Positions 46,484 through 60,538 of a stretch of 64,000 nucleotides of DNA are shown here, piece after piece. This stretch comes from Serratia fonticola. GTDB lineage: Bacteria; Pseudomonadota; Gammaproteobacteria; Enterobacterales; Enterobacteriaceae. The stretch lies in contig NZ_CP011254.1 of NCBI RefSeq assembly GCF_001006005.1, positions 5,270,001-5,334,000 of the forward strand, in the 5' to 3' direction. Both the position numbers and the translations under genes were made by a program. Position 1 is the first letter of the stretch, and each line of letters starts with the position of its first letter. A model generated the notes under the pieces. That model was not told the DNA's origin. It made no database searches and worked only from the letters and a program-made list of their open reading frames with translations.

Positions 46484-47884
46484 ATGTTCGGACTTGATGC
46501 ATTGGAGCTGGCACGGATCCAGTTCGCCTTCACCGTTTCCTTCCATATTATCTTCCCGGCGATCACCATCGGCATGGCCAGCTATCTGGCGGTGCTCGAA
46601 GGCCTATGGCTGAAAACCGGCAATCAGGCTTACCGGGATCTGTACCACTTCTGGTCGAAAATCTTCGCCGTTAACTTCGGCATGGGCGTAGTCTCGGGCC
46701 TGGTGATGGCCTATCAGTTCGGCACCAACTGGAGCTTTTTCTCCGAGTTTGCTGGCAGTATCACCGGCCCATTGCTGACCTATGAAGTGCTGACTGCCTT
46801 CTTCCTCGAAGCCGGTTTCCTGGGCGTGATGCTGTTTGGCTGGAACCGTGTTGGCCCCGGTCTGCACTTCTTTGCCACCTGTATGGTAGCACTCGGCACG
46901 CTGATCTCCACCTTCTGGATCCTGGCCTCCAACAGCTGGATGCAGACCCCGCAGGGGCATGAGATCATCAACGGCGTCGTCGTGCCGGTTGACTGGTTCA
47001 AAGTGATCTTCAACCCGTCCTTCCCTTACCGCCTGCTGCATATGACCACTGCGGCATTCCTGTCGTCGGCCTTCTTTATCGGTGCCTCGGCGGCATGGCA
47101 CCTGCTGCGTGGCCGTGATACGCCAGCCATGCGCAAAATGCTGTCGATGGCCATGTGGATGGCACTGATCGTCGCCCCTATTCAGGCGGTGATCGGCGAC
47201 GCACACGGCCTCAATACGCTGAAATATCAACCGGCCAAAATCGCCGCCATCGAAGGCCACTGGGAAAACCCGCCGGGAGAGGCCACGCCGCTGATCCTGT
47301 TCGGTTGGCCGGATATGGAACGTGAAGAAACCCGCTTCAAGGTGGAAATCCCTTACCTGGGCAGCCTGATCCTCACCCACAGCCTCACCGAGCAGGTTCC
47401 GGCGTTGAAATCCTTCGCACCGGAAGACCGCCCTAACTCCACCGTGGTGTTCTGGTCGTTCCGCATCATGGTGGCGCTGGGCATGCTGATGATCCTGGCT
47501 GGCGTGTGGAGCCTGTGGCTACGCTGGCGCGGCGGACTGTATCAGTCCAAACCCTTCCTGTACTTCATTCTGTGGATGGGGCCTTCGGGGCTGATTGCCT
47601 TGCTGGCGGGCTGGTTCACCACCGAGATTGGCCGCCAGCCATGGGTCGTCTACGGGCTGCAACGCACCGCCGATGCCGTCTCTGCCCACGGTGACATCCA
47701 TATGAGCGTGAGCCTACTGGCCTTTATCGCCGTCTATTGCTCGGTGTTTGGCGTCGGCTACTCCTACATGATGCGTCTGATCCGCAAAGGCCCACAGACC
47801 CATGAAGGTGACGAGCCCAGCGGCCACGGCACACCGGCACGCCCGCTCTCAGCGGTACACGAAACTTTGGACGACAGGAGCTGA
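46484..47884 (+). CDS. cioA: Cytochrome bd-type ubiquinol oxidase subunit I (CioA-like)
   Basis: A 466-residue membrane oxidase subunit binding hemes b558, b595 and d. Family blocks: LARIQFAFTVSFHIIFPAIT (heme b595 His), NFGMGVVSGLVMAYQFGTNW, LLHMTTAAFL (b558 His), GDAHGLNTLKYQPAKIAAIE, and GRQPWVVYGLQRT. The quinol loop is short, as in CioA-type (cyanide-insensitive) oxidases rather than E. coli CydA. Strong RBS AAGGAGG. It couples quinol oxidation to O2 reduction with modest proton-motive force. Confidence 0.9.
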   Translation: MFGLDALELARIQFAFTVSFHIIFPAITIGMASYLAVLEGLWLKTGNQAYRDLYHFWSKIFAVNFGMGVVSGLVMAYQFGTNWSFFSEFAGSITGPLLTYEVLTAFFLEAGFLGVMLFGWNRVGPGLHFFATCMVALGTLISTFWILASNSWMQTPQGHEIINGVVVPVDWFKVIFNPSFPYRLLHMTTAAFLSSAFFIGASAAWHLLRGRDTPAMRKMLSMAMWMALIVAPIQAVIGDAHGLNTLKYQPAKIAAIEGHWENPPGEATPLILFGWPDMEREETRFKVEIPYLGSLILTHSLTEQVPALKSFAPEDRPNSTVVFWSFRIMVALGMLMILAGVWSLWLRWRGGLYQSKPFLYFILWMGPSGLIALLAGWFTTEIGRQPWVVYGLQRTADAVSAHGDIHMSVSLLAFIAVYCSVFGVGYSYMMRLIRKGPQTHEGDEPSGHGTPARPLSAVHETLDDRS

Positions 47885-47886
47885 AC

Positions 47887-48894
47887 ATGGGTATCGATCT
47901 TCCGTTGATTTGGTTTGTGATCATCGTGTTCAGCACCATGATGTACGTGGTCATGGACGGCTTTGATCTGGGCATTGGCATTCTGTTCCCGTGGGTGAAA
48001 AACAGCCACGATCGCGATGTGATGATGAATACCGTGGCACCGGTGTGGGACGGCAACGAAACCTGGCTGGTGCTCGGCGGAGCCGCCCTGTTTGGGGCTT
48101 TCCCCCTGGCGTATGCGGTGATCCTGGACGCGTTGGCCATTCCCCTCACCCTGATGCTGTTTGGCCTGATCTTTCGCGGCGTAGCCTTTGAGTTCCGCTT
48201 CAAGGCCCAACCGGAAAAGCGCCATATCTGGGATAAGGCATTTATCGGCGGTTCAATCCTGGCAACCTTCTGCCAGGGCGTGGTGGTCGGGGCGATTATC
48301 GACGGCTTCCCGGTGGAAGGCCGTGCCTATGTTGGCGGCCCCTTCGACTGGTTCACACCGTTCGCCCTGTTCTGTGGTTTGGGCTTGGTAGTGACCTATG
48401 CGTTACTTGGCTGCACCTGGTTGGTGATGAAGACTGCCGGAAGCTTGCAGGCCCGGATGCATCGTCTGACCACCCCGCTGTTGGCTAGCCTGCTGCTAAT
48501 CTTGCTGGCCGTCAGCGTGTGGACGCCAATCGCTCACCCTGAAATTGCGACCCGCTGGTTCAGCCTGCCGAACCTGTTCTGGCTGCTACCGGTGCCGCTG
48601 TTGGTGCTGCTCAGCGCCTGGGGTATCTGGCACGGCGTACGCCACGATGCCCACTATTCGCCGTTCCTGTTGACGCTGTTGCTGGTGTTTCTGGGGCTAA
48701 GCGGTCTGGGTATCAGCATCTGGCCGCTGCTGATCCCACCGACCATCACCCTGTGGCAAGCCGCTGCGCCGCTACAAAGTCTGGGCTTTATGCTGGTGGG
48801 CGCGCTGTTTATTATTCCGATTATTTTGGTCTACACCTTCTGGAGCTACTACGTGTTCCGCGGCAAGGTGAGCCATGAGGATGGGTATCACTGA
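47887..48894 (+). CDS. cioB: Cytochrome bd-type ubiquinol oxidase subunit II (CioB-like)
   Basis: A 335-residue polytopic subunit (CydB family). It starts with LPLIWFVIIVFSTMMYVVMD, then GFDLGIGILFPWV, APVWDGNETWLVLGGAALFG and a C-terminal WSYYVFRGKV, all typical. Shorter than E. coli CydB, matching the CioB class. It is 2 nt after subunit I, and its stop overlaps the next start (TGATG). Confidence 0.92.
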   Translation: MGIDLPLIWFVIIVFSTMMYVVMDGFDLGIGILFPWVKNSHDRDVMMNTVAPVWDGNETWLVLGGAALFGAFPLAYAVILDALAIPLTLMLFGLIFRGVAFEFRFKAQPEKRHIWDKAFIGGSILATFCQGVVVGAIIDGFPVEGRAYVGGPFDWFTPFALFCGLGLVVTYALLGCTWLVMKTAGSLQARMHRLTTPLLASLLLILLAVSVWTPIAHPEIATRWFSLPNLFWLLPVPLLVLLSAWGIWHGVRHDAHYSPFLLTLLLVFLGLSGLGISIWPLLIPPTITLWQAAAPLQSLGFMLVGALFIIPIILVYTFWSYYVFRGKVSHEDGYH

Positions 48895-49052
48895 TGATGA
48901 ACAAGACGATGAATGAGAAGAGCGCCACCATTCCCTGGTGGAAACGCGTCGGCTGGTTGGTGGTTATCTGGAGTGCGAGCGTCTTGGGGTTGTTTTTGGT
49001 CGCTTCGCTATTCCGCCTGCTGATGACCGCCGCCGGGATGAAGCCGGAATAA
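48894..49052 (+). CDS. DUF2474 small membrane subunit of the bd oxidase
   Basis: A 52-residue ORF (MMNKTMNEKSATIPWWKRVG...) with WWKR before a single membrane helix (about 20-45) and a Met-Lys-Pro-Glu end. This is the pattern of DUF2474 proteins found behind CioAB-type operons, functionally comparable to CydX of the E. coli enzyme. The ATG overlaps the subunit II stop by 1 nt, so translation is coupled. A second ATG at 48897 is possible. It ends 2 nt before the stop of the convergent desaturase gene. Confidence 0.85.
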   Translation: MMNKTMNEKSATIPWWKRVGWLVVIWSASVLGLFLVASLFRLLMTAAGMKPE

Positions 49053-49054
49053 CT

Positions 49055-50149
49055 TTACTGCTTCCCCATCGATCCCAAAAAACGCTGTTGCATCTGCAAC
49101 AGCGTTTTCAGATCCAGGCACTGATAATCCAGCCCGTGTTGAGCCGCAACCTCGGCAATAATCTTCGCCAGAGCCGGGTAATGCCGATGGCTCCAATGCG
49201 GGAACAGATGATGGGTCAGGTGCAGGTTGGCGCCGCCCAGCCAGTAGCCAACCCAGAGCGGCTTGGCCTGCCAGTCGAAGGTGGTGGCAAACAGATGTTG
49301 ATACCAGCCATGCACCATCTTGCCCTGCTCGGGAGCCTGATAAAAATTGGCTTTGGCCCAATGGGTACCGACAATCAGCATCACAAACACCAACGACGAC
49401 AGCATCTGGCTCAGCAGGTAAGTTAGCCATATCGCCGTGGCGCTGATCTCAGGTGGCATCAGCCAGAGCGGGATTGCCAACGCCAACGTGAAGTGCGCCA
49501 GCTTGCTCAGCAAGAAAACGCCCCAGCCTTTGCTCCCCTGCAACATCATCTTGGGCGTCATGCGCGTTTTGCCAGCCCGATCCAACCAGTCAAAAAGCCA
49601 GATGTAATACGGGAAAGTCAGTGCCGCCACTATCGGCCAGTAGTATTGCTGCAAACGCATAAAGGTTTTGCGCTGCTGGAACGGCGTTTGCCGCAGCACG
49701 CCGTTCGGCTCAATATCCGGATCGTAACCTTCGATATTGTTGTAGGCATGGTGGAAGATGACGTGGCGCACCCGCCAACAGTCCGCATCCAACCCCAACG
49801 GGATGCTCACAATAAAGTTAAGCCAGTGGTTCAGCCGTGCCTGTTTGAAAAAGGCATTGTGTGAGGCGTCGTGCACCACGTTCACCGTCAACATCATGGC
49901 GGAGAAAATAAAGCCGACGTAGCAGCCGAAATAGGCCCAGGCGTTTTGCTGCTGCAAACTGAGTGCATAAAAGCCCGCGCACACCAGGATCAGCAGCAAC
50001 ACCTTAGCGAACATCCCACGGTCGGCAAAGCGGTGGTCGCCCCGCTCCGCCAGATAGGCCTGGCTGCCACGCATCAGCGCCAGATGAATGTCGCGGTTCT
50101 CCCGTTGGAACGTCAAGGGCCGCAGCGGCGTGGTATCAGGCATCTTCAT
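49055..50149 (-). CDS. Membrane fatty acid desaturase (eighth gene of lipid cluster)
   Basis: A 364-residue di-iron desaturase with about four membrane helices. The three histidine boxes are HDASHN, HVIFHHAYNN and HLTHHLFPHW (plus a downstream HRHYP), placing it with the acyl-lipid/acyl-CoA front-end type (linoleoyl-CoA desaturase-like). All eight or more metal-binding histidines are present. It overlaps the preceding paralogous gene by 4 nt (ATGA). Its last codons form a perfect hairpin that doubles as a terminator for the opposite operon. Substrate unknown. Confidence 0.88.
   Translation of the reverse strand: MKMPDTTPLRPLTFQRENRDIHLALMRGSQAYLAERGDHRFADRGMFAKVLLLILVCAGFYALSLQQQNAWAYFGCYVGFIFSAMMLTVNVVHDASHNAFFKQARLNHWLNFIVSIPLGLDADCWRVRHVIFHHAYNNIEGYDPDIEPNGVLRQTPFQQRKTFMRLQQYYWPIVAALTFPYYIWLFDWLDRAGKTRMTPKMMLQGSKGWGVFLLSKLAHFTLALAIPLWLMPPEISATAIWLTYLLSQMLSSLVFVMLIVGTHWAKANFYQAPEQGKMVHGWYQHLFATTFDWQAKPLWVGYWLGGANLHLTHHLFPHWSHRHYPALAKIIAEVAAQHGLDYQCLDLKTLLQMQQRFLGSMGKQ
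49079..49108 (+). terminator. Terminator of the bd-oxidase operon, inside the desaturase CDS
   Basis: Perfect 14-bp inverted repeat AAAACGCTGTTGCA / TGCAACAGCGTTTT with a 2-nt centre (effective loop 4 nt or more). It begins 27 nt after the DUF2474 stop and ends in TTTT on the plus strand. On the minus strand it encodes part of the conserved LLQMQQRF region near the desaturase C-terminus. Confidence 0.78.
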
Positions 50150-51240
50150 AGCGGTTGTTGCCCCATCGCACGCAGAAAGCGCTGCTGCTGTTGCAACAGC
50201 TCACGATAGCCGATGCAGCGATAATCCATGCCATAGCGTGGCGCAAGTTCGGCCAGTATGGCGGCCAGCGCCGGATAATGGCGGTGATTCCAGCCGGGGA
50301 ACAGATGGTGGGTGAGATGATAATTCAGCCCGCCGGTCAGATGATGCATCCACTTCGGCGAGGTTTCCCAGTCACAGGCGGTGGCAAAGTTGTGCCGATA
50401 CCAGCCCTGCGGCATTTGGCTTCCTTCTGGCACCTCGTAAAACTCAGCCTGCGCCCAGTGAGTCCCCAACAGTAAGAACACCACCAGCAGCGAGGCCAGC
50501 ATCTGGCTCAGCAGATAGGCGATCAGCACCGTCTGCCAGCCAATGCCGTGTTGCTGGCAAACTACCAACGGGATCACCAGCACCACCAAAATGTGGCACA
50601 GTTTGCTAGCAATAAATACTGCCCAGCCTTTGCGCCCAGCCAGCACACCCTCAGCGGCCAACGGAGTTTTGCCCAATCGGTCCGACCAATCAAACACCAG
50701 CGCAATATAGGGCAGCGACAAGGCGGCAATCAGCGGCCAGTAAAGATGCTGATAGCGCATGTGCGCCCGCCATTGTTGGAACGGCGTCTGGCGGAAAAAG
50801 CCGTTCTCTTCGGTATCCAGATCGTAATGTTCAACGTTGGCATACACATGGTGATAGCTGACGTGCCGCGTCCGCCAGTAATCCGGATCGACCCCCAATG
50901 GGATCGTCACCAAACGCCCCGCCAGGCGATTCACCCAAGGAGTGCGGGCGAACGCATTATGCGAAGCGTCATGATTGACGTTGACGTTCAGCAACATGCC
51001 CATCATGACAAAAGCGAAATAGCACAGCATAAACGCCAGCCCCTGCTGCTGCACCAGGCTGAGCAGGTAGAACCCCACGCACAGCAACAGCAGGACGATA
51101 GCCTTGACCCAGCGGGCTACATCGGCAAAGCGGTGATCGTCGCGACCACTCAGATAAGCATGGGCTCGACGTTTCAATTCACGATGAAACGCCTGCTCCC
51201 CATCCGCAGGGAAAGAGAGTGGCGGCAACGAGTCAGCCAT
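50146..51240 (-). CDS. Membrane fatty acid desaturase (seventh gene of lipid cluster)
   Basis: A 364-residue paralog of the next gene, with boxes HDASHN, HVSYHHVYANVEH and HLTHHLFPGWNH. Equal length and shared landmarks (RRAHAYLSGRDDHRFAD, QTPFQQW, C-terminal QQRFLRAMG) indicate a tandem duplication followed by divergence. ATG at 51240 (MADSLPPL) overlaps the upstream stop by 8 nt; a longer frame to 51297 lies within the hydroxylase gene and is unlikely. Two different double-bond positions or substrates are plausible. Confidence 0.88.
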   Translation of the reverse strand: MADSLPPLSFPADGEQAFHRELKRRAHAYLSGRDDHRFADVARWVKAIVLLLLCVGFYLLSLVQQQGLAFMLCYFAFVMMGMLLNVNVNHDASHNAFARTPWVNRLAGRLVTIPLGVDPDYWRTRHVSYHHVYANVEHYDLDTEENGFFRQTPFQQWRAHMRYQHLYWPLIAALSLPYIALVFDWSDRLGKTPLAAEGVLAGRKGWAVFIASKLCHILVVLVIPLVVCQQHGIGWQTVLIAYLLSQMLASLLVVFLLLGTHWAQAEFYEVPEGSQMPQGWYRHNFATACDWETSPKWMHHLTGGLNYHLTHHLFPGWNHRHYPALAAILAELAPRYGMDYRCIGYRELLQQQQRFLRAMGQQPL

Positions 51241-52351
51241 GCGCAGCTTCCTTCTGGCGTCCCCAACCAGCGGCGACGGCGCAGCCATGCACGGCAATGC
51301 CGCAGGTCATCAGCCACCAGTAAGGTTGGTGCCACCCCAGCGCCAACAACAACAGCAGTGGAGCGGCCAACGCCACCAGTAACCAGGTCTTTACGCCCCA
51401 GCTACGGCCTTCGGCAATCCCACCCAGCGCCACCGCGCCTACCGCCAACAGCATAAACAGCGCCGCCTGCTCGCCAGTCAGGCCGTTGTAGCCGTACCCG
51501 AAGCGATAAACATAGCCCAGCACCAGGGCGAACAGCAGCAACGCACCACTCACCATGCACCAGGCGGAACTGCGGAAACGGCCGCTATTGGCCGAGGGTT
51601 TGAAAGGCAGTTTGAAGTAGCGCAAAAACGGCTGATTACTGGCCCAGAACGGGTTAGCCGAAGATTTCTCCCCGCGTACGCCATAGGCGAAAGGCTCGGT
51701 TGGCAGCGATGGGCCAAAGGTGCCAAACAGCTTGTCCCAGAAGATAAAGCTGCCGCCAAAGTTACGGTTGGAATAGGCCAGATCGTTGACGTGATGTACC
51801 CGATGATGCGCTGGGGTAACAAAGATTTTTTCCAGCAAGCCCAGCTTTGGGGTCAGCGCATTATGGTTAAACAGTTGAATGCCGTAATGCAGGATCGAAA
51901 CGGTGATAAACACCGAAAGCGGCACACCGGCCAGCGCCAGCAGCATAAAGAACGGGATCGACGTTAATGACGAATACCACGAGTTACGTACGCCCAACGA
52001 CAGATTGAAGTGTTCGCCCTGGTGATGCACCACATGCACCGCCCACAGCAGGCGGAAACGGTGATGCAGACGGTGTAACCAGTAAAAACCAAAGTCCCAC
52101 GCCAGCAGGGCAAACAACCACACCAGCGCGACCGGCCAGCTATCTACCAAGCCCAGGCTGTAATGGCTTGCCACATAGCCATAGCAGAAGATCTCCAGCC
52201 CCCGGAACAGCCACAGCATGATATGCCCGGAGTTGAGGTTGAAGATCACATCGTGCCAATCAACGCTGCCCCGGTTGCGCTTTTGCAGCCACAGGGCTTC
52301 GCCCAGCACCACGCACAGCATAAATATTATCGGTATTACCAGATCGGTCAT
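51233..52351 (-). CDS. Sterol desaturase/fatty acid hydroxylase family protein (sixth gene)
   Basis: A 372-residue integral membrane di-iron protein. The His clusters of the FA_hydroxylase family are complete: HRLHHRFRLLW, HVVHHQGEHFN, HNALTPKLG and HHRVHHVNDL. Four extra hydrophobic helices in the last about 110 residues form a tail beyond the usual catalytic domain. It probably hydroxylates or desaturates a lipid intermediate. It overlaps the PAP2 gene stop by 4 nt. The regiochemistry cannot be told from sequence. Confidence 0.85.
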   Translation of the reverse strand: MTDLVIPIIFMLCVVLGEALWLQKRNRGSVDWHDVIFNLNSGHIMLWLFRGLEIFCYGYVASHYSLGLVDSWPVALVWLFALLAWDFGFYWLHRLHHRFRLLWAVHVVHHQGEHFNLSLGVRNSWYSSLTSIPFFMLLALAGVPLSVFITVSILHYGIQLFNHNALTPKLGLLEKIFVTPAHHRVHHVNDLAYSNRNFGGSFIFWDKLFGTFGPSLPTEPFAYGVRGEKSSANPFWASNQPFLRYFKLPFKPSANSGRFRSSAWCMVSGALLLFALVLGYVYRFGYGYNGLTGEQAALFMLLAVGAVALGGIAEGRSWGVKTWLLVALAAPLLLLLALGWHQPYWWLMTCGIAVHGCAVAAGWGRQKEAAHG

Positions 52352-52965
52352 GGTCGTTCTCCCTGACGATAATCACTGACAATCCATCGAACATGCTGGC
52401 AAGCATAGCCGACGGCCATGGCCAGCACCGCCCCACTGAGCAAATCCACCAGCAGGTGACGGCGCAGTTGCAGGATTGAGAAGGCAATCGCCAACCCCCA
52501 AACTGACAACAGTACGCTGCGCCATTTTTTCCGGCTGTCCGCCACGCCCCACACGGCCAGGGCCGTCAAGGCTATATGCAAAGAGGGTAAGCAGTTTTGT
52601 TTTGAATCAATTCCGATCAATGCCGCCAGCATGGTGGAGCTGAGTGAACTGCCGTGATCGACCGGGTAGTCCATCGTCGTCGGCCACAGCAGATAGATGG
52701 CCCCCGCAACAATAGCGGCAAGCTGCATTGAGCTTCTAAGCCATTTGATCCGGCTCAGCGGACACAGCAGATAGCACAGCGGAACGATCAGGAAAAAAGA
52801 CAGGTATAGCCAGATAGCATGCGGGCTGAAGGGGATAGCGCGATCCAGCCAACTCGGCATCAGCTGATAACCCGCTCCTTGCCATCGGTCAGTAGCGTTA
52901 TAAATCAGGCCAACAAAGCCCCAGCCCAGCAGCATTTGCCATAGGCGATAGATCACCTCTTTCAT
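52348..52965 (-). CDS. PAP2-superfamily membrane phosphatase/transferase (fifth gene)
   Basis: A 205-residue membrane protein with five to six helices. Catalytic motif C2 is visible as CLPSLHIALT and C3 as RRHLLVDLLSG, giving the two histidines and the aspartate of PAP2 enzymes. The canonical KX6RP motif is not obvious, which points to the divergent PAP2-like group that includes inositol-phosphoceramide-synthase-type transferases. It could remove phosphate from a lipid phosphate or move a headgroup. Overlaps the next gene by 4 nt. Confidence 0.78.
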   Translation of the reverse strand: MKEVIYRLWQMLLGWGFVGLIYNATDRWQGAGYQLMPSWLDRAIPFSPHAIWLYLSFFLIVPLCYLLCPLSRIKWLRSSMQLAAIVAGAIYLLWPTTMDYPVDHGSSLSSTMLAALIGIDSKQNCLPSLHIALTALAVWGVADSRKKWRSVLLSVWGLAIAFSILQLRRHLLVDLLSGAVLAMAVGYACQHVRWIVSDYRQGERP

Positions 52966-54248
52966 GGCGCCTCCGGCAAACGCACGATGCGTCGGCGTTT
53001 AGCATCAAACTGCGGCATGATACTTTGCGCGGTCAGTTGCCACTCCAGTTGCTGCACCGCGATACCTTGCTGGATAAACAGCGCGATTAGCTGCTGCTGA
53101 CAATGTTCCAGCTCGGCAGGGCTACAGTCGGCCATCAGGTGCAGCCGTTGGCTAGACAACTGGGTCAGGCGATAATCCGCCACAGCGGGCAACGCGTTGG
53201 CAATCACCCGGCGGCACAGGTCGGCAAAGACTCGCTGCGCTGCGCCCTGCAATCCTGGCAGCAACAGTTGATCGTCACAGCGCCCTTCAATCCGCTCCAA
53301 CGCCATGCTGGCCTGGCCGCATGGGCAAGGCTCCGCACGCCGCACCAGAATATCATCCAGCCGATAACGCACGATCGGCTGCGTACGGCGGGTAAAATCG
53401 GTGATCAGCGGGGTAAAGCGCTGCTCATCGATCCACTGCGGTTCCACGTGAATAAACTCTTCGTTCAGATGCAAGGTGCCGTGGCTACAGGTGGCAGCCA
53501 GAAAACCTTCGGTGGCTTGATAGACTTCGCCCACGTCGGCAAATACCCGCTTTAGCAGTTGGCGATCCTGCGGCTCCAGCACCTCGGCCACCGAGATCAC
53601 CTTTTTCACCTGTAGTCGTAACTCGCCCCGCTCGACCGCATTAGCCAACGCGCACAATACCTGCGCAGGTGCGACCACGATGGTGGGTTGCTCGCGTTCA
53701 ATCTGCGGTAAGTGCTCGGCAAAGGGAGCAAACAGATCGTAAAACGTCAGGCTCAACCAGCGGTTGTTGACGCTGTGGTACAGATTGTTGTCCGCACGCA
53801 GAAACAGCGCGACCCGCTCACCGGCAAACACCCCTTGCGGCAGCATTTTGGCCAGCATGCCGCCAGCCCAGATCTGCTGTTCCTGCGGGCTGACCACAAA
53901 CACGCCGCGTCGCCCAGAGGTGCCGGTCGATAAACCCACGCTGTATTTGCCCACTTTTGGGGTGAAATCGCGATCGGTTTCGCTGCGCCGGGCACAGGCC
54001 AACAGAGCCTCAAGTTGCAGCCCGGCGGTATTCATCCGATCAAAATGCGTCATCATGATCGCTTTGTCCATTTCTGGCCATTCGCTCACAGGTAACAGAC
54101 AGTATGGCCGGAAATAGGGGCTATGCGCCAATACCCGACGGGCAAAGCGTTTTAACTGACGCGCCTGATAAGCCTCCAGTTCTGCCCGTTCGGTGAAATG
54201 CAGCCTGCGTGCTCGCAGATAGTGCCATAGCGTCATCAGCGGGATCAT
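52962..54248 (-). CDS. F390 synthetase-related adenylate-forming enzyme (fourth gene)
   Basis: A 428-residue member of the PaaK/F390-synthetase-like branch of AMP-forming enzymes. Motifs: the P-loop-like LSTGTSGRRGVFVVS, the substrate/AMP motif YQATEGFLAATC, YRLDDILVRR (ribose-binding Asp) and CPCGQ. It should activate a carboxylate as acyl-AMP, with CoA, ACP or another nucleophile as acceptor. This clade is known from biosynthetic loci but has, to my knowledge, no firm general reaction. 4-nt overlaps on both sides. Confidence 0.82.
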   Translation of the reverse strand: MIPLMTLWHYLRARRLHFTERAELEAYQARQLKRFARRVLAHSPYFRPYCLLPVSEWPEMDKAIMMTHFDRMNTAGLQLEALLACARRSETDRDFTPKVGKYSVGLSTGTSGRRGVFVVSPQEQQIWAGGMLAKMLPQGVFAGERVALFLRADNNLYHSVNNRWLSLTFYDLFAPFAEHLPQIEREQPTIVVAPAQVLCALANAVERGELRLQVKKVISVAEVLEPQDRQLLKRVFADVGEVYQATEGFLAATCSHGTLHLNEEFIHVEPQWIDEQRFTPLITDFTRRTQPIVRYRLDDILVRRAEPCPCGQASMALERIEGRCDDQLLLPGLQGAAQRVFADLCRRVIANALPAVADYRLTQLSSQRLHLMADCSPAELEHCQQQLIALFIQQGIAVQQLEWQLTAQSIMPQFDAKRRRIVRLPEAP

Positions 54249-55051
54249 AAATCCCCCTCATGGCACAACAGGATCTCTGCCGCGCCGCCGTGATGCAGTT
54301 GGTTGAGCGCTTCAAGGGTTTGGTAGTAGCTACGCGGATTATCCATGATCAGGTTCGCCAGCCGTGAAGGACCACGCAGTTGCTGGTAGTTCAGCGGCGA
54401 CCAGGCGGCATCGCTTGCCAGCAGCGTCCAGCCCGCGTCGGTTTGGACAAAGGCACCAAGATGGCCCGCCGCATGGCCTGGCAGAGGCACAATGAGGATT
54501 TGCCCATCGCTGCCCGGCAGCGCATATCCCTGCTGGAACGGTGCCAGTTCGGCTGGCAGACTCTGTAGCGGGAATGACTCCACAAACTGCAATGCGGATT
54601 CAAACTCCTCGGGGATCAACCCCGGTATAAACGCCCGCTTCAGGGCGGCAAAGCCACGCAGCTCACGAGTTTGCTGCCAGCCCTCACCGGAACAAATCAT
54701 GTTGAGGCTGCTGAAATCACGCAGGCCAGCGATATGGTCAGCATGAAAATGGGAAATAATCACCGCCTCAATATCACCCACACTGACACCCCGGCTACGC
54801 AACTGCTCAAGCAGCGCCTGCTGTGGGCTGAAATAGACCGGGGTAATCTGGCTATACAACCGGAAAATACCGCTGGCGGTGTACTGTTGGAAATAGCTGG
54901 CATAACCGGTATCCCATAGCCAGCGACGCTCGCCCACCTCCAGCAGGTAGGCACGGGAAGGGAATTTGCAGCTACGCATCGGCGAGCCACGCAGCGCCAT
55001 GCAGCCAAGGTGGGTGCAATAGCCGATTTCAAAGGTGGTGATGTTAGCCAT
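54245..55051 (-). CDS. MBL-fold hydrolase (third gene of lipid cluster)
   Basis: A 268-residue metallo-beta-lactamase-fold protein of the AHL-lactonase/glyoxalase-II-like type. Metal motif HFHADH at residues 101-106, then PGHAAGHLG, ASDAAW and a C-terminal CHEGDL. The N-terminal stretch YCTHLGCMALRGSPMRSC is unusually cysteine-rich. Within this operon it could hydrolyse a thioester, lactone or ester intermediate. Its ATG overlaps the stop of the reductase gene by 8 nt. Confidence 0.82.
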   Translation of the reverse strand: MANITTFEIGYCTHLGCMALRGSPMRSCKFPSRAYLLEVGERRWLWDTGYASYFQQYTASGIFRLYSQITPVYFSPQQALLEQLRSRGVSVGDIEAVIISHFHADHIAGLRDFSSLNMICSGEGWQQTRELRGFAALKRAFIPGLIPEEFESALQFVESFPLQSLPAELAPFQQGYALPGSDGQILIVPLPGHAAGHLGAFVQTDAGWTLLASDAAWSPLNYQQLRGPSRLANLIMDNPRSYYQTLEALNQLHHGGAAEILLCHEGDL

Positions 55052-56060
55052 GCGCCGCCATCCCCTGCTGTTTCATCCATTGCCCGGTCAGCTCAATCCC
55101 CTGCTCCAGGCTATAACGTGGCCGGTAGCCCAGCTCTTCAATCGCGCGGCTGTTATCCAGCGTCATATCAAAATAGGCGGCCGCCGCGCTGTAACGCGTC
55201 AGCATCGGCTCTTTGCCGGTAAAATGGGCTATCAATTCCATGCCACCTGCCACCGCCCACAACAGCCGATAAGGCAATGCCTGCACCCGATATTGCCAGC
55301 CTAACTGCTGGGCTAGCAGTTGGTGCAGCATATCCTCCAGCCGCTGCGGCTGTTGGTTGGTGATGTTATAAATGCCGCCGGAAGGCAAATTCGGCCGGTT
55401 GCTGGCCAGATCCATTGCATGCACTACGTTGAGCACAAAGGTCAGATCCAGATAGGCTTTACCGCCACCGGGCAGGCGCAGAGCACCTTTGTCACGCTGC
55501 ATCTGGGCCAGGATCCTGGGTACGATCACTCGGTCATGCGGGCCAAACAGGCCACGCGGGCGCAGGATCAGGTAGGTGGTTTGCGGATAGCGATGCAGCA
55601 GCGCGCTAATGCTCTGTTCGGCAGCATACTTGCTGGCAGCGTAATGATTGGCAAACCGGCGGGCAGACTCACCTTCGGTGATGTTGTGATGATGTTTGAA
55701 ATCAAAATAGATCGCTGGCGTCGAGATATGGATAAAGCGTTTCACCCCGCAGCGCCCGGCAGCTTTGGCGAGCTTTTCCGTGACGTAGGTGTTGGCCTGG
55801 AAAAACGCCTTGCGATCGCCCCACGGGGAAGATTTGGCGGCACAATGCCAGACGATGTCATAACCCCTCATCAGTTGTTCGCACTGTTCCATCCCGGCAC
55901 GGGTCAGATCTAACGGGGTAAACTTTGCCCCCAATGCCACCAACTCACGACCAACGGCCTCATCACGCCCGGTGGCATGCACCTGATGCCCGGCAGCCAA
56001 CAGCCACTCGGCCGCATTGCGCCCTAACCCACTGGTTGCTCCGGTTACCAAGACTTTCAT
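55044..56060 (-). CDS. NAD(P)-dependent epimerase/dehydratase, 3-beta-HSD-like reductase (second gene)
   Basis: A 338-residue extended SDR. The Rossmann motif GATSGLG (7-13), an active-site pair Tyr140-x3-Lys144 with Ser113, and a C-terminal substrate domain are visible. The extended-SDR/3-beta-hydroxysteroid dehydrogenase group includes OleD, which reduces 2-alkyl-3-ketoacids made by OleA; here it directly follows a KAS III-type gene, so ketoacyl reduction is the natural guess. 4-nt overlap with the synthase gene. Confidence 0.82.
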   Translation of the reverse strand: MKVLVTGATSGLGRNAAEWLLAAGHQVHATGRDEAVGRELVALGAKFTPLDLTRAGMEQCEQLMRGYDIVWHCAAKSSPWGDRKAFFQANTYVTEKLAKAAGRCGVKRFIHISTPAIYFDFKHHHNITEGESARRFANHYAASKYAAEQSISALLHRYPQTTYLILRPRGLFGPHDRVIVPRILAQMQRDKGALRLPGGGKAYLDLTFVLNVVHAMDLASNRPNLPSGGIYNITNQQPQRLEDMLHQLLAQQLGWQYRVQALPYRLLWAVAGGMELIAHFTGKEPMLTRYSAAAAYFDMTLDNSRAIEELGYRPRYSLEQGIELTGQWMKQQGMAAHG

Positions 56061-57064
56061 GGCAGCAGAACCATGCCGCCCAGGGTCAGCCCAGCAGCGG
56101 TACCGATCAACATTACCGGCTGATTGACATTCAGCCTGTCGGTGATCGCCGCTTCATGTAAAGCTGATGGAATTGATGCCGCCACCTGGTTGCCCCGGTA
56201 ACGATAGATATCCACCAACGCCTCTGGCGCTACATGCAGCCTTTTGCGCATATGTTCCAGCGAGAGATGGCTGGCCTGGTGCGGCACCACGGTGGCGATT
56301 TGTGGCAAGGTGAGCCCTGCGGCGCTCAGCAAGCGCTCAAGGTAGCCTTCAATCAGCGCCGAGGCTTGGCGGAACAACTGTTTGCCCTTCATATGGAACA
56401 GAAAATCGCTGTCGTTCATCCCGGCACGCGGATTACGGCGTGTGCCACCGGCGCGGATTTCACACAGATCGCTGCCTTCCGGATAGGTTTCCATCAGGTA
56501 GGACAAAATCCCACTGCGCCCATCGCCGCGTTCCACAATGGCACAGGCGGCACCATCACCAAAAATCAGTGAGGACTCTTCATCCTCCCAGTCGATACCG
56601 CGCGAGGCAATATCGGCAGAGACGATGGCAATTCGCCGGTAAACGCCGGCGTTGAGTAGCCCAGCCGCCACCTGCAATGCGCTAATAAAGCTGACGCAGC
56701 TGGTATTGATATCAAAACCTGCGGTACCTGAGGCTAAGCCGGCGATTTTAAGAATATGCGCGGCACTAAAGGGCAATGCCTGTACGGCAATGGCCGAGGC
56801 CGAGATCAACAGATCGATGGAATCACGCGGGATAGCATGGCGAGCCAGCGCGTCATCCAATGCGGCGACGGCCAGTTCGGCCTGGCTGGCCTGATTGCTG
56901 GCATGAAAGCGATGAATAATCCCCGAGCGTTTTTCTACATAGCCGACGGGTTTGTTCAATTGCCGATCCAACGCCGAAGATTCGATGCAGCCGGGAGGCA
57001 AAGCCGCGCCGGTCGCGATGATTTTCAGCGGCAGGACGGGGTGGGACAGGTTATCAATGGTCAT
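56057..57064 (-). CDS. Beta-ketoacyl synthase III-type condensing enzyme (first gene of lipid cluster)
   Basis: A 335-residue thiolase-fold enzyme. The KAS III triad can be placed at Cys123 (INTSCVSF), His262 (VPHQASH) and Asn292 (GNQVAAS), with the C-terminal GTAAGLTLGGMVL. Length and motifs suit FabH-like or OleA-like condensation rather than FabB/F. It heads an operon without a free-standing ACP, so CoA thioesters or housekeeping acyl-ACP may be the substrates. The promoter must lie in 57065-57330; no clear consensus was found. Confidence 0.85.
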   Translation of the reverse strand: MTIDNLSHPVLPLKIIATGAALPPGCIESSALDRQLNKPVGYVEKRSGIIHRFHASNQASQAELAVAALDDALARHAIPRDSIDLLISASAIAVQALPFSAAHILKIAGLASGTAGFDINTSCVSFISALQVAAGLLNAGVYRRIAIVSADIASRGIDWEDEESSLIFGDGAACAIVERGDGRSGILSYLMETYPEGSDLCEIRAGGTRRNPRAGMNDSDFLFHMKGKQLFRQASALIEGYLERLLSAAGLTLPQIATVVPHQASHLSLEHMRKRLHVAPEALVDIYRYRGNQVAASIPSALHEAAITDRLNVNQPVMLIGTAAGLTLGGMVLLP

Positions 57065-57331
57065 AGGTGTTCAGTCTGCTTATCCCTAACTCGTTTGGCT
57101 TAGCATCCAGCGTAATTAATCAAACCATTTACGCTCTTTTGATCTAGCCCTTATTTAACATCAGCATAATGAAAATCCTAACAGGAATTTTTACTGATTG
57201 ATTCCGTTCGCTTAACTAACCTGGTAAACCATGCCGTTAACCTAATGGCACAGCCTAGATCAACGCCGAAAAGAGATCTATAAGAATAAGCTATTTGGCC
57301 TGCTCTGGGAAAACAAGGCGGGTCAAAGTTG
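57065..57331. other. Promoter-side gap of the lipid operon
   Basis: About 270 nt of mostly AT-rich sequence between the condensing-enzyme start and the REP doublet. It likely holds the operon promoter (AT-rich around 57110-57200). No ORF or recognised operator is visible. Confidence 0.35.
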
Positions 57332-57484
57332 CCCCTCACCCTAACCCTCCCCCACAGGGCTAGGGGACCGAACGTGCCACAGTTTAACTTCTGCGCCCAA
57401 CCACAACACTGGAGCCGCTCCCTCTCCCTTTGAAAGGGTTAATGATGTCTCCGATCTGTACGGGGGAGAGGGTTGGGGTGAGGG
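57332..57484. repeat. REP doublet (diverged) between narI and the lipid operon
   Basis: Left arm from 57332 (CCCCTCACCCTAACCCTCCC, then CCACAGGGCTAGGGG) and right arm ending at 57484 (GGGGGAGAGGGTTGGGGTGA, then GGGG). The left arm is followed by ACCGAACGTGCCACAGTTTA, the same flank that follows other copies. The interior contains a further CCCTCTCCC partner at 57420, so the element looks rearranged. Confidence 0.8.
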
Positions 57485-57550
57485 GAAAAATCAATAATTG
57501 AATCAACGGTAAAAGAGTATTGGTTAAGCAGCAATACGAGGAAAGCAGAA

Positions 57551-57580
57551 CAGCGGCAACGTCCAAAGACCTTGCCGCTG
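57551..57580 (-). terminator. Terminator of narGHJI
   Basis: Stem CAGCGGCAA / TTGCCGCTG (9 bp, 12-nt loop) starts 15 nt after the narI stop. On the minus strand it is followed by TTCTGCTTTCC, a moderately U-rich tract. Confidence 0.72.
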
Positions 57581-57594
57581 GGTAACGCGGGGAA

Positions 57595-58272
57595 TTAACG
57601 GCGGTTACGTACCAACTGGTAGCGGCGAGTCAGATATTCCACCGGCACGCTCCAGATATGCACCAGGCGGCAGAACGGGAATATCAGGAACAGGGTCATG
57701 CCAAGCACGATATGGATCTTGAATATCAATGCAACCCCTTCCAGGTGCTGAGCCGCACCGCCATGGAAGGTCACCACCGCTTGCGCCCAGGCGACCAACT
57801 TCAGCATCTCGCTGCCGTCCATGTGTTGAGCAGAGAACGGAATGGTCAGCAGCCCCAGGCACACCTGCACGACCAGCAACGTCAGGATCAGGATATCCCC
57901 TACGCTACTGGTGGCGCGGATACGTGGGTTGGTCAAACGGCGCTTTAATAACAGCACACCGCCCACCAACATCATCACGCCGCAGGCCCCACCGGCAAAC
58001 ATCGCCATTTTCTGCTTCACGGCGATCGGCAGGAAAGACTCATACATCCAGTGCGGCGTCAGCATGCCGAGGAAGTGCCCGGCAAAAATGCCCAGAATAC
58101 CGATATGGAACAGGTTAGAGGCCAGCCGCATGCCCTTTTTATCCAACATCTGGCTGGAGCCAGCACGCCAGGTGTATTGCCCATAGTCGTAGCGCAGCCA
58201 ACTGCCGATCAGGAAGATCGCCCCGGCGATATACGGATAGATATCGAAAAAGAAAAGCGTCAGAAAGTGCAT
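57595..58272 (-). CDS. narI: Respiratory nitrate reductase gamma subunit NarI
   Basis: A 225-residue membrane cytochrome b with five helices. It binds two b hemes through conserved histidines (visible in [17 protein letters not shown] and [22 protein letters not shown]) and oxidises quinol at the periplasmic side, passing electrons to NarH. Last gene of the operon, 2 nt after narJ. Confidence 0.96.
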
Positions 58273-58274
58273 GA

Positions 58275-58997
58275 TTAGCGTCCTTTGGTTGCCGTGGTCA
58301 TTGAGCCCACATCCAGATACTGTGGCGCCACCGCCCCAGCAAAGCGCCGCTGGTGAGTGGCTTGCTGCGCCGAAGCACAGCCCTGCTCACCCAAAAACTT
58401 GATCTGTTCTTCTTCCCAGACGGCATCCAGTGCCTGTGGCGTGTCGTCACGTGTTTCACCGGCAACTTGTGGCTGCAAACTGTTGGCTGCAACGCCACTA
58501 GCAGACAACACCAGCAGCAGATCGAACAGCACCGCATACGGGCTTTGACGCTGCTGCAAACGAGCCCCCAGCAGGGCCAGAATGGGGGCGATATCCTGCA
58601 ATCCGCCTTGAGCTTCCTCTTTGTTGCGGCTAGCCAGATACTCTAGGTACAGCGGCAGGAAGTCCGGCAGTTCGCGGCTGTCGATCTCCAGCCCGGCTTC
58701 GCGGTATTGCCCCATCAGATCGACCATCGCCTGGCCGCGATCGCGGGATTCACCGTGAACGTGCTCAAACAACAACAGTGAGGTCGCACGGCCGCGATCG
58801 AACAGTTCGCAATACTCCGCCTGCACGTCCAGCAACGGACGGGCGCAGAAGCGGCGGATAAACAGAATCAGTTGGGCGCTGTGATGCAAATCCAGTTCGC
58901 AGGCCGGTTCCAGGGCTTCCAGCAGATCTTGCTGATGGTCAAACAGCTCCTGCTCAGGATAATCCAGCAGGCGGGCAATAATTCGCAGAGCGATCAT
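58275..58997 (-). CDS. narJ: Nitrate reductase assembly chaperone NarJ
   Basis: A 240-residue redox-enzyme maturation protein (TorD-like fold). It binds apo-NarG, checks cofactor insertion and membrane attachment, and is not part of the final enzyme. Start [20 protein letters not shown] is typical. It overlaps narH by 4 nt. Confidence 0.95.
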
Positions 58998-60538
58998 GAG
59001 GCATCCTCCTTGCGCGGGGTTTTCTGCGTCACGTCGATGGCATCGATGCGGCGGCTGTTAAACAGGTTGAACTTGCTGTCGCTGCCGTGGCAACCGTCGC
59101 CAAAGCTGAAGCCACAGCCTTTGCTTTCCGGGAAGGCTTCGCGCGCCAGCTCACGATGGCTGGAAGGCACGACGAAACGGTCTTCGTAGTTGGCGATCGC
59201 CAGATAGCGATACATCTCTTGCGCCTGCGCCTCTGTCAGTCCCACCTGCTCCAGCGCGCTGGTATCCACCACGCCGTCCACGGTTTCTGCCCGCTTGTAG
59301 TGGCGCATCGCCAACATCCGTTTCAGCGCCAACAGCACCGGAGCGGTATCCCCGGCGGTCAACAGATTCGCCAGATATTGCACCGGGATGCGCAGGCTTT
59401 CGACATCAGGCAACACGCCGCTGTGGGCCAACTCACCGGCATCAGCAGCCGACTGGATCGGAGACAACGGCGGCACGTACCACACCATCGGTAAGGTGCG
59501 ATATTCCGGGTGCAGCGGCAGCGCCAGCTTCCAGTCCATCGCCATCTTGTAAACCGGCGACTGCTGCGCAGCCTCAATCACCCCTTGCGGGATACCGTCT
59601 TTCAGCGCTTGCTCAATCACCGCCGGGTCGTGCGGATCGAGGAAGATATCCATTTGGCTCTGATACAGGTCTTTATCGTTCTCTGTCGCGGCCGCTTGTT
59701 CAATGCGGTCGGCATCGTACAGCAGCACGCCGAGATAGCGGATACGCCCCACGCAGGTTTCTGAACATACGGTCGGCTGGCCAGCCTCAATCCTTGGGTA
59801 GCAGAAGATGCACTTCTCGGATTTGCCGCTCTTCCAGTTGAAGTAGATTTTCTTGTACGGGCAGCCGGTCAGGCACATCCGCCAACCGCGGCATTTATCC
59901 TGATCGATCAGCACAATGCCGTCTTCGCCGCGTTTATAGATCGCACCGCTCGGACAAGTCGCCACACAGGCCGGGTTCAAGCAGTGCTCGCACAGGCGTG
60001 GCAGATACATCATGAAGGTGTTTTCGAACTGGCCGTACATCGCCTTCTGCATGTTGTCGAAGTTTTTATCTTTGGCACGCTTGTCGAACTCGCCGCCGAG
60101 GATCTCTTCCCAGTTTGGGCCGCTTTCGATCTTGTTCATCCGCTGGCCGGTGATCAGCGAGCGCGGACGGGCGATCGGCTGATGCTTGCCCTGCGGGGCG
60201 GTATGCAGGTTCTGGTAGTCGTAATCGAACGGCTCGTAGTAATCGTCCAGTGCGGGCACGTCCGGGTTGGCAAAGATCTTCGACAGCAGGCCAACGCGGT
60301 TACCCATGCGCGGCTCCAACTTGCCGTTGATTTTGCGTATCCAGCCGCCCTTCCATTTATCCTGATCTTCCCAGGCGTTGGGATAGCCGATGCCTGGTTT
60401 GCTTTCCACGTTGTTGAACCAGGCGTATTCCATGCCTTCGCGGCTGGTCCAGACGTTCTTACAGGTCACCGAACAGGTATGGCAACCGATGCACTTGTCC
60501 AGGTTGAGCACCATGCCAACTTGCGAACGAATTTTCAT
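58994..60538 (-). CDS. narH: Respiratory nitrate reductase beta subunit NarH
   Basis: A 514-residue electron-transfer subunit. Fe-S cluster motifs are CIGCHTCSVTC, CEHCLNPACVATC, CRGWRMCLTGC and CIFC...CSETC. The tryptophan replacing a cysteine in the third motif marks the [3Fe-4S] cluster characteristic of NarH. It receives electrons from NarI and passes them to NarG on the cytoplasmic face. It overlaps narG by 4 nt (ATGA). Confidence 0.97.
   Translation of the reverse strand: MKIRSQVGMVLNLDKCIGCHTCSVTCKNVWTSREGMEYAWFNNVESKPGIGYPNAWEDQDKWKGGWIRKINGKLEPRMGNRVGLLSKIFANPDVPALDDYYEPFDYDYQNLHTAPQGKHQPIARPRSLITGQRMNKIESGPNWEEILGGEFDKRAKDKNFDNMQKAMYGQFENTFMMYLPRLCEHCLNPACVATCPSGAIYKRGEDGIVLIDQDKCRGWRMCLTGCPYKKIYFNWKSGKSEKCIFCYPRIEAGQPTVCSETCVGRIRYLGVLLYDADRIEQAAATENDKDLYQSQMDIFLDPHDPAVIEQALKDGIPQGVIEAAQQSPVYKMAMDWKLALPLHPEYRTLPMVWYVPPLSPIQSAADAGELAHSGVLPDVESLRIPVQYLANLLTAGDTAPVLLALKRMLAMRHYKRAETVDGVVDTSALEQVGLTEAQAQEMYRYLAIANYEDRFVVPSSHRELAREAFPESKGCGFSFGDGCHGSDSKFNLFNSRRIDAIDVTQKTPRKEDAS

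What the first reader, a model, noticed from the sequence alone, without database searches (positions are those of the whole stretch)
49055..57064. Eight-gene, fully overlapping operon for an unrecognised lipid-type product
Seen: eight minus-strand genes (KAS III-type synthase, extended SDR, MBL hydrolase, F390-synthetase-like adenylating enzyme, PAP2 protein, sterol-desaturase-family hydroxylase, two desaturases) with every junction overlapping by 4 or 8 nt. Known: each family acts on acyl chains, thioesters or lipid headgroups. Inference: one dedicated pathway that builds, reduces, activates and then hydroxylates and desaturates a long-chain or ketone-type lipid in the membrane. I do not know a named pathway with this exact set, and it is flanked by ordinary respiratory genes.
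Basis: partly seen in the sequence, partly recalled or inferred. Interest (0 to 1): 0.88.

Follow-up and report, generated by a model that had tools for sequence, protein, structure and literature searches.

The report
Modular lipid-building operon, product unknown
A Serratia chromosome carries eight overlapping genes that very probably make an undescribed membrane lipid; four of the genes form a core kept together in many bacteria, including a minority of E. coli strains, while the genes that decorate the product come and go as blocks.

Summary
In detail: eight complete minus-strand genes with seven overlaps of 4, 8, 4, 4, 4, 8 and 4 nt, between cydAB and narHJI. Relatives change the picture. 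The conserved unit is a four-gene core: FabH-like ketosynthase, OleD/3beta-HSD-like reductase, lactonase-like MBL hydrolase and PaaK-like adenylating enzyme (TIGR02304). All four occur in 80 of 80 named genome loci kept and 8 of 8 further plasmid loci opened. Around the core sit exchangeable cassettes: A (PAP2, hydroxylase, one or two desaturases, as here) or B (second reductase, ceramide-glucosyltransferase-like GT, small unknown protein, second GT); six of the 80 carry both. Most of the core matches in 672 of 5,426 complete E. coli genomes. Best reading: the core condenses, reduces, releases and activates a long-chain acyl product that becomes a membrane lipid; cassettes add head groups and modify chains. 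A ceramide-like two-tailed lipid is plausible but unproved: PAP2 resembles IPC synthase about as much as phosphatases. No held paper contains 'F390 synthetase-related' or 'TIGR02304'. Product chemistry is inference.

The parts
56057..57064 (-). KS: KAS III/FabH-like ketosynthase, 335 aa; triad C123-H262-N292; Leu97 where OleA/PpyS have Glu
55044..56060 (-). SDR: extended short-chain dehydrogenase, OleD/3beta-HSD-like, 338 aa; S113, Y140, K144
54245..55051 (-). MBL: metallo-beta-lactamase-fold hydrolase, lactonase-like fold, 268 aa; ligands H101 H103 D105 H106 H193 D214 H264
52962..54248 (-). F390: TIGR02304 adenylate-forming (PaaK-like) enzyme, 428 aa; K417 conserved; last gene of the conserved core
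52348..52965 (-). PAP2: PAP2_3 membrane protein, 205 aa; first gene of cassette A; phosphatase or head-group transferase
51233..52351 (-). HYD: FA_hydroxylase (sterol desaturase superfamily), 372 aa; histidine clusters conserved
50146..51240 (-). DES2: membrane fatty acid desaturase, 364 aa
   Evidence: (scanned as 50146-51234)
49055..50149 (-). DES1: membrane fatty acid desaturase, 364 aa, 51% identical to DES2; the single desaturase of E. coli EC28 matches this one best
57065..57594 (-). intergenic stretch between narI and KS with one 25-nt imperfect inverted repeat (57329-57353 / 57464-57488) and one terminator-like site (57347-57320); no FNR-like site with fewer than two mismatches and no sigma-70-like promoter found

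Best explanation
This is one member of a family of lipid biosynthetic clusters, not characterised in the held literature, built from a fixed four-enzyme core plus exchangeable decorating cassettes. Shown by sequence comparison: the core is KS-SDR-MBL-F390, its genes share one history, the proteins keep their catalytic residues, and the cassettes vary. Inferred mechanism: (1) KS condenses an activated acyl chain from normal fatty acid synthesis with a second acyl or malonyl unit to a beta-keto thioester; (2) SDR reduces the beta-keto group to a beta-hydroxyl; (3) MBL hydrolyses the thioester, or a lactone derived from it, to the free hydroxy acid; (4) F390 adenylates that acid and passes it to CoA or directly to an acceptor. 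(5) In this operon the membrane enzymes then work on the lipid: PAP2 removes or transfers a phosphate head group, HYD adds a hydroxyl and DES2/DES1 introduce double bonds, the last three with oxygen. In cassette B relatives, glycosyltransferases supply the head group instead. The product is a membrane lipid, not a freely diffusing small molecule. The order of steps 2-4 and the number of chains joined are not known.
For: Core genes all present in 80 of 80 named loci (the best 80 of 440 relatives, so mostly near kin), in 107 of 109 loci of a mixed, partly redundant set (L040 has no KS, L042 is a broken copy; KS is split in L084 and SDR in L075), and in 8 of 8 further plasmid loci that I chose to open, from Alpha-, Beta- and Gammaproteobacteria, Bacillota and Fusobacteriota. 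Cassette A complete in 57 of 80, cassette B in 16, both in 6, neither in 11. Co-inheritance r 0.82-0.95; purifying selection. KS closest solved relatives are 4v2p (MxnB; the name is recalled and fits the residue numbers of PMC4578411) and CorB; MxnB joins two long chains (PMC5724707 passages). SDR's best named families are 2-alkyl-3-oxoalkanoate reductases (150 and 143 bits, cut-off 580) and its best solved match, by one bit, is a sterol-4-alpha-carboxylate dehydrogenase; both act on 2-branched 3-oxo/3-hydroxy acids (recalled). Tail enzymes are lipid enzymes: FA_desaturase, FA_hydroxylase, PAP2_3; GT21, whose only solved relatives at E below 1e-3 are ceramide glucosyltransferases (3e-9); and in one Rhizobium plasmid DUF3419, the family of the betaine-lipid enzyme BtaA (recalled).
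Against: No product, expression or mutant data. KS scores only moderately better for MxnB (157 bits) than for the best FabH (130), and it lacks the Glu of OleA and PpyS, so a FabH-like malonyl condensation is not excluded. The MBL model's 50 listed fold neighbours are mainly lactonases and phosphotriesterase-type hydrolases, no thioesterase named among them. The best NCBIfam model of GT21 is the hopanoid enzyme HpnI (82.5 bits, cut-off 310), not a ceramide enzyme. Some distant cores sit beside ATP-grasp, GNAT and Rieske proteins, which fit an amino-acid-bearing or more polar product as well. In Xenorhabdus and Snodgrassella no cassette A or B gene follows the core, so a membrane lipid is least supported there. 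One relative found by the profile, G1034, has a related adenylating gene without the core.
Confidence: 0.55

Rival explanations
1. [quoted passage not shown]
For: Same logic of condensing enzyme, OleD-like reductase, ANL ligase and hydrolase (Ole roles: PMC7064751 passages); OleD-like models are the best named hits of SDR; MBL model is lactonase-like.
Against: The OleA/PpyS glutamate is Leu or Ile in 107 of 107 alignable KS rows (2 further rows have a gap), never Glu (PMC4578411 parts 1 and 2 of 3 read). No alpha/beta hydrolase gene in the operon. The OleA entry set holding 3s23 scores 29.7 bits against 157 for MxnB. Hydrocarbons would not need head-group enzymes such as GT21 or PAP2_3 (inference).
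Confidence: 0.12
2. A diffusible lactone or pyrone signal or antibiotic: KS makes an MxnB-type pyrone or related ring, SDR and F390 tailor it, and MBL is a lactonase for turnover or self-protection.
For: KS closest to MxnB/CorB; MBL fold among AHL lactonases and pyridoxolactonase; no cassette after the core in Xenorhabdus and Snodgrassella.
Against: Three to four membrane lipid-modifying enzymes in 57 of 80 loci are unusual for a signal; MBL is as conserved as the other core genes, as if catalytic in the pathway. Regulators differ where seen (LysR beside L025; TetR beside L004 and L160); I made no systematic search for regulators or resistance genes.
Confidence: 0.15
3. Ordinary modification of existing phospholipid acyl chains: desaturases and hydroxylase adapt membrane fluidity and the other genes merely supply or recycle acyl chains.
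For: Two FA_desaturases and one FA_hydroxylase are present.
Against: The desaturase/hydroxylase block is the dispensable part; the core persists without it.
Confidence: 0.08

Closest known systems
MxnB / CorB ketosynthases (myxopyronin, corallopyronin)
   Same: Nearest solved relatives of KS (157 and 142 bits; 4v2p is called only 'ketosynthase' there, MxnB is recalled and fits the numbering); C-H-N triad; hydrophobic residue where OleA and PpyS carry Glu (Leu97 here, V94 in MxnB/CorB per PMC4578411).
   Different: No PKS module or carrier protein among the eight genes; SDR, MBL and PaaK-like partners; membrane lipid enzymes follow.
OleABCD olefin / OleACD beta-lactone pathway
   Same: Condense, reduce with an OleD-like SDR, activate with an ANL enzyme.
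   Different: KS lacks the OleA Glu; no OleB-type hydrolase; SDR is far under the OleD cut-off (150 of 580 bits); lipid head-group cassettes.
Sphingolipid head-group and chain-modifying enzymes (IPC synthase, ceramide glucosyltransferase, hydroxylases, desaturases)
TIGR02304 (aden_form_hyp, F390 synthetase-related protein)
   Same: The adenylating enzyme is a full member (592.5 bits, cut-off 251.9).
   Different: The family has a name, but neither its accession nor its name occurs in the held papers.

Membership tests
TIGR02304 adenylate-forming family | score above the curated NCBIfam cut-off | tested here: met
   592.5 bits against 251.9
Ole pathway | OleA-type glutamate (E117; E105 in PpyS) in the ketosynthase | tested here: not met
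   Leu97 in the window; Leu 103 and Ile 4 of 107 alignable KS rows, no Glu; the position corresponds to V94 of MxnB by the alignment and PMC4578411
Ole pathway | OleB alpha/beta hydrolase in the cluster | tested here: not met
   no Abhydrolase match among the eight proteins
Ole pathway | OleD equivalog-level reductase | tested here: not met
   150.1 and 143.4 bits, cut-off 580
Ole pathway | OleC-type ligase | tested here: inconclusive
   best models are TIGR02304 and PaaK-like; no model named OleC was seen in the output
MxnB/CorB type ketosynthase | FabH-like C-H-N triad without the Glu | tested here: met
   C123, H262, N292 kept; best solved hits 4v2p and CorB. FabH shares the triad, so this does not set the two apart
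MxnB/CorB type ketosynthase | joins two long acyl chains through a second tunnel | not testable with these tools
   needs a structure with tunnels or an assay
AHL lactonases and 4-pyridoxolactonase (NCBIfam models) | score above curated cut-off | tested here: not met
   pyridoxolactonase 54.1 of 325; AiiA 42.8 of 375; AidB 42.3 of 360; AttM 39.2 of 390 bits
lactonase-like MBL fold | HxHxDH-H-D-H ligands and fold | tested here: met
   seven ligands in 109 of 109 rows; model pLDDT 94.0 matches quorum-quenching lactonases and 4-pyridoxolactonase, TM about 0.75
PAP2 phosphatase versus IPC/SM synthase-like transferase | closer fold to one than the other | tested here: inconclusive
Sphingolipid biosynthesis | serine palmitoyltransferase-type enzyme in the cluster | tested here: not met
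   no aminotransferase-class PLP enzyme among the eight; rest of the genome not searched

The most novel reading that the evidence does not exclude
The core makes a two-tailed, ceramide- or diacylglycerol-like lipid backbone by joining two acyl chains and reducing the result, without serine or glycerol; cassettes then give it phosphate-linked, sugar or other head groups. It would be a separate lipid class, present as a variable trait in E. coli, Serratia, Pseudomonas, Pectobacterium and Providencia, with the core reaching as far as Bacillota and Fusobacteriota.
Probability: 0.3. Interest if true: 0.92.

Novelty: new variant of a known kind. Interest (0 to 1): 0.72.

Why it matters
A conserved lipid pathway without a product described in the held papers, matching in about one in eight complete E. 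coli genomes (672 of 5,426) and in plant-, insect- and animal-associated relatives, would mean that the lipid inventory of very well studied bacteria is incomplete. The modular layout makes it directly testable: core-only, cassette A and cassette B versions exist naturally, so comparing lipid extracts of such strains should show a shared backbone mass and predictable decorations.

Tried and rejected
Co-regulation with nitrate respiration: narI lies in 28 of 109 loci, but a search for FNR-like sites between narI and KS in 24 sequences found none with fewer than two mismatches, and oxygen-dependent desaturases fit poorly with anaerobic control; not supported, left open as a question.

A scar of the cluster in E. 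coli K-12: the searched K-12 stretch from the end of narI to tyrT matches the EC28 locus only in narI and in tRNA-Tyr sequence and its short repeats.

Structured RNA in window 48500-58000: no Rfam match at gathering score.

A virulence phenotype in Pseudomonas syringae pv. actinidiae (PMC9823363, passages only): a transposon mutant in a 'Coenzyme F390 synthetase' gene had virulence score 2. I could not tie that gene to this family, and a nearby locus tag is annotated as anthranilate synthase, so it is not used as evidence.

Clusters for ladderane-type lipids that mention an F390 synthetase (PMC2649909, passages): described with FabF paralogues and radical SAM enzymes, other partner genes; not taken as the same system.

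Wider census: 18 of 149 genomes of the window's family score over the TIGR02304 cut-off and 7 of 398 in a phylum sample that includes the window and four more of its family. At E 1e-40 with profile A1, 1 of 196 in the order of G277 (G277 itself) and 4 of 369 in the class: the window, G197 and G879, which hold the core, and G1034, which does not. Outside the home family the cluster is rare and patchy.

Rows dropped or chosen: one search left out SDR hits under 130 bits except in six distant loci, to keep second reductases out; the tree used 40 of the 80 named loci plus 15 others, long ORFs cut to their last 432 residues; of the 30 plasmid rows listed I opened eight new ones, seven of them annotated as F390 or CoF synthetase or adenylate-forming enzyme and one without annotation, and left the weak haloarchaeal rows, other listed rows and the 31 unlisted records closed.
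Full report
WHAT IS THERE. The window is a 64-kb stretch of a 6.0-Mb single-contig genome whose nearest named relative at this locus is Serratia silvae (97% identity in the adenylating enzyme). Between 57064 and 49055 on the minus strand lie eight complete genes whose seven junctions overlap by 4, 8, 4, 4, 4, 8 and 4 nt. Pfam and NCBIfam give KAS III, extended SDR, MBL hydrolase, TIGR02304, PAP2_3, FA_hydroxylase and two FA_desaturases. The neighbours are cytochrome bd oxidase genes (46484-48894, +) and narHJI (57595-60538, -).

THE UNIT IN RELATIVES. A query from most of KS to most of F390 (window 53000-56900) matches in 672 of 5,426 complete E. coli genomes, 670 of them over at least 80% of the query, at 60-80% DNA identity (about 67% in the rows listed). 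In the one opened chromosome, strain EC28, the cluster lies between narI and the tRNA-Tyr genes and has seven overlapping genes, one desaturase fewer. K-12 lacks it at that site. A profile of ten relatives (A1) gave 440 places in the GTDB species collection that encode a relative; the best 80 were kept. All 80 hold KS, SDR, MBL and F390 (KS in two pieces in L084); 57 hold cassette A (PAP2 + HYD + at least one DES), 16 cassette B (second SDR + GT21), 6 both, and 11 neither a hydroxylase nor a GT21. In a larger but partly redundant set of 109 loci (which includes the window's own copy and several genomes twice), 107 hold a match to each core gene; L040 lacks KS and L042 is broken; L125 lists SDR before KS, and L075 has SDR in two pieces. 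The 11 loci without cassettes are ten Xenorhabdus and one Snodgrassella; five of the Xenorhabdus loci have a PAP2 gene upstream of KS. I laid out the neighbours of four of the ten Xenorhabdus loci and of Snodgrassella; their other neighbours were not identified, apart from one short-chain dehydrogenase upstream in Snodgrassella.

CASSETTES. Cassette B is SDR2, a GT21 glycosyltransferase, a ~190-aa protein without a Pfam or NCBIfam match, and an MGT-type glycosyltransferase. GT21's best NCBIfam model is hopanoid HpnI (82.5 bits, cut-off 310); its only solved relatives at E below 1e-3 are ceramide glucosyltransferases (3e-9, residues 4-363). A tree of 55 F390 proteins (40 of the 80 named loci plus 15 others) needs 12 changes of architecture label (minimum 4, shuffled mean 27.0, as low in 0 of 200 shuffles): the cassettes follow the lineage but were gained or lost several times. 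Serratia, Pseudomonas, Azoarcus and Snodgrassella copies group together (support 95/82), which points to transfer between distant hosts.

DISTANT CORES. Of 61 plasmid records with a tblastn match to F390 (30 listed) I opened eight beyond the three opened earlier. All eight hold all four core genes: Paracoccus, Pontibacillus, Paenibacillus, two Pseudomonas, Rhizobium, Paraburkholderia and Fusobacterium; in Pseudomonas sp. Leaf58 other genes lie between them, and in Fusobacterium the order differs. Their added genes differ: ATP-grasp (Pontibacillus, Paenibacillus, Paraburkholderia), GNAT PF13480 (Paenibacillus, Paraburkholderia), DUF3419 (Rhizobium), and in Fusobacterium a GT21 match (160 bits) and a weak match to the small cassette B protein (25 bits). 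Of five loci of distant relatives from the phylum sample (L072-L076), three have a Rieske oxygenase gene next to the core, two of them with an ATP-grasp gene; the other two were not scanned for it. Outside the home family the cluster is rare, and one profile hit, G1034, has no core.

FUNCTIONAL SIGNS. Distance matrices of 24 gene pairs correlate at r 0.82 to 0.95, none of 500 permutations as high; this shows shared history, which vertical descent alone would also give, and is read together with the conserved adjacency. dN/dS is 0.03 to 0.22 in four pairs. Catalytic residues (rows include the window and its own genome copy): KS C123 in 107 of 107 alignable rows, H262 and N292 in 108 of 108; SDR S113, Y140, K144 in 110 of 110; seven MBL ligands in 109 of 109; F390 lysine K417 in 109 of 110; five PAP2 residues in 82 of 82; nine of the ten tested hydroxylase histidines in 77 of 77 and the tenth in 75; the eight tested histidines of DES2 in 54 of 54 and of DES1 in 68 of 68.

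MECHANISM. My best reading is condense (KS), reduce (SDR), release (MBL), activate (F390), then decorate in the membrane (PAP2, HYD, DES2, DES1). The grouping and the enzyme classes are shown; each reaction is inferred. The bolder reading, a ceramide- or diacylglycerol-like backbone made of two acyl chains, rests on three coincidences: an MxnB-like KS, an SDR related to enzymes of 2-branched acids, and head-group enzymes related to ceramide glucosyltransferase, IPC synthase and (by family, recalled) BtaA. I give it 0.3.

KNOWN OR NEW. It is not the Ole pathway (three defining features tested and not met). It is not shown to be sphingolipid synthesis. The words 'F390 synthetase-related' and 'TIGR02304' occur in none of the 5.39 million held papers (supplementary files not searched), and in searches combining the other gene names no listed title or abstract start describes the operon (in one search only 20 of 613 papers were listed). 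Papers of subscription journals are mostly not held, so an existing description elsewhere is possible. I rate it a new variant of a known kind: a lipid biosynthetic operon with a conserved core and an undescribed product.

Noticed in passing
L002 (NZ_CP141085.1, 77550-100263) and H21 (CP054248.1): Two E. coli records labelled plasmids (386 kb and 542 kb) hold the cluster; in the one opened, L002, it sits in a chromosome-like narK-to-tdk stretch, which suggests a split chromosome or a mis-labelled replicon rather than mobility of the cluster.
   Followed up: no
L165:9304-11467: In a Rhizobium plasmid the core is followed directly by a DUF3419 protein (family of betaine-lipid enzyme BtaA, recalled) and an unknown 368-aa protein: another possible head-group cassette.
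   Followed up: partly
L167:2198-9141: Fusobacterium vincentii has the core in a different order with a GT21 match and a weak homologue of the small cassette B protein; the record is labelled plasmid although 2.1 Mb long.
   Followed up: partly
L116:13433-14017: The ~190-aa cassette B protein has no Pfam or NCBIfam match; among the 80 named loci it was found in 13 of 16 that have GT21 and in none without.
   Followed up: no
L042: A broken copy of the core: KS, SDR and F390 in several short open frames and no MBL match, an apparent decaying cluster.
   Followed up: no
window 57329-57488: A 25-nt imperfect inverted repeat with 110 nt between the arms in the narI-KS gap; one arm has a look-alike upstream of KS in Serratia sp. 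H1w (L081) but not in the other eight Serratia regions aligned (last 330 nt only).
   Followed up: partly
L169:4528-5245 (E. coli K-12): Where other E. coli carry the cluster, K-12 has ychS, rttR/tpr and short copies of a tRNA-Tyr sequence.
   Followed up: partly
window 44933-46342: A GntR-aminotransferase fusion (MocR-type regulator, name recalled) on the minus strand beyond cydAB; not part of the operon.
   Followed up: no
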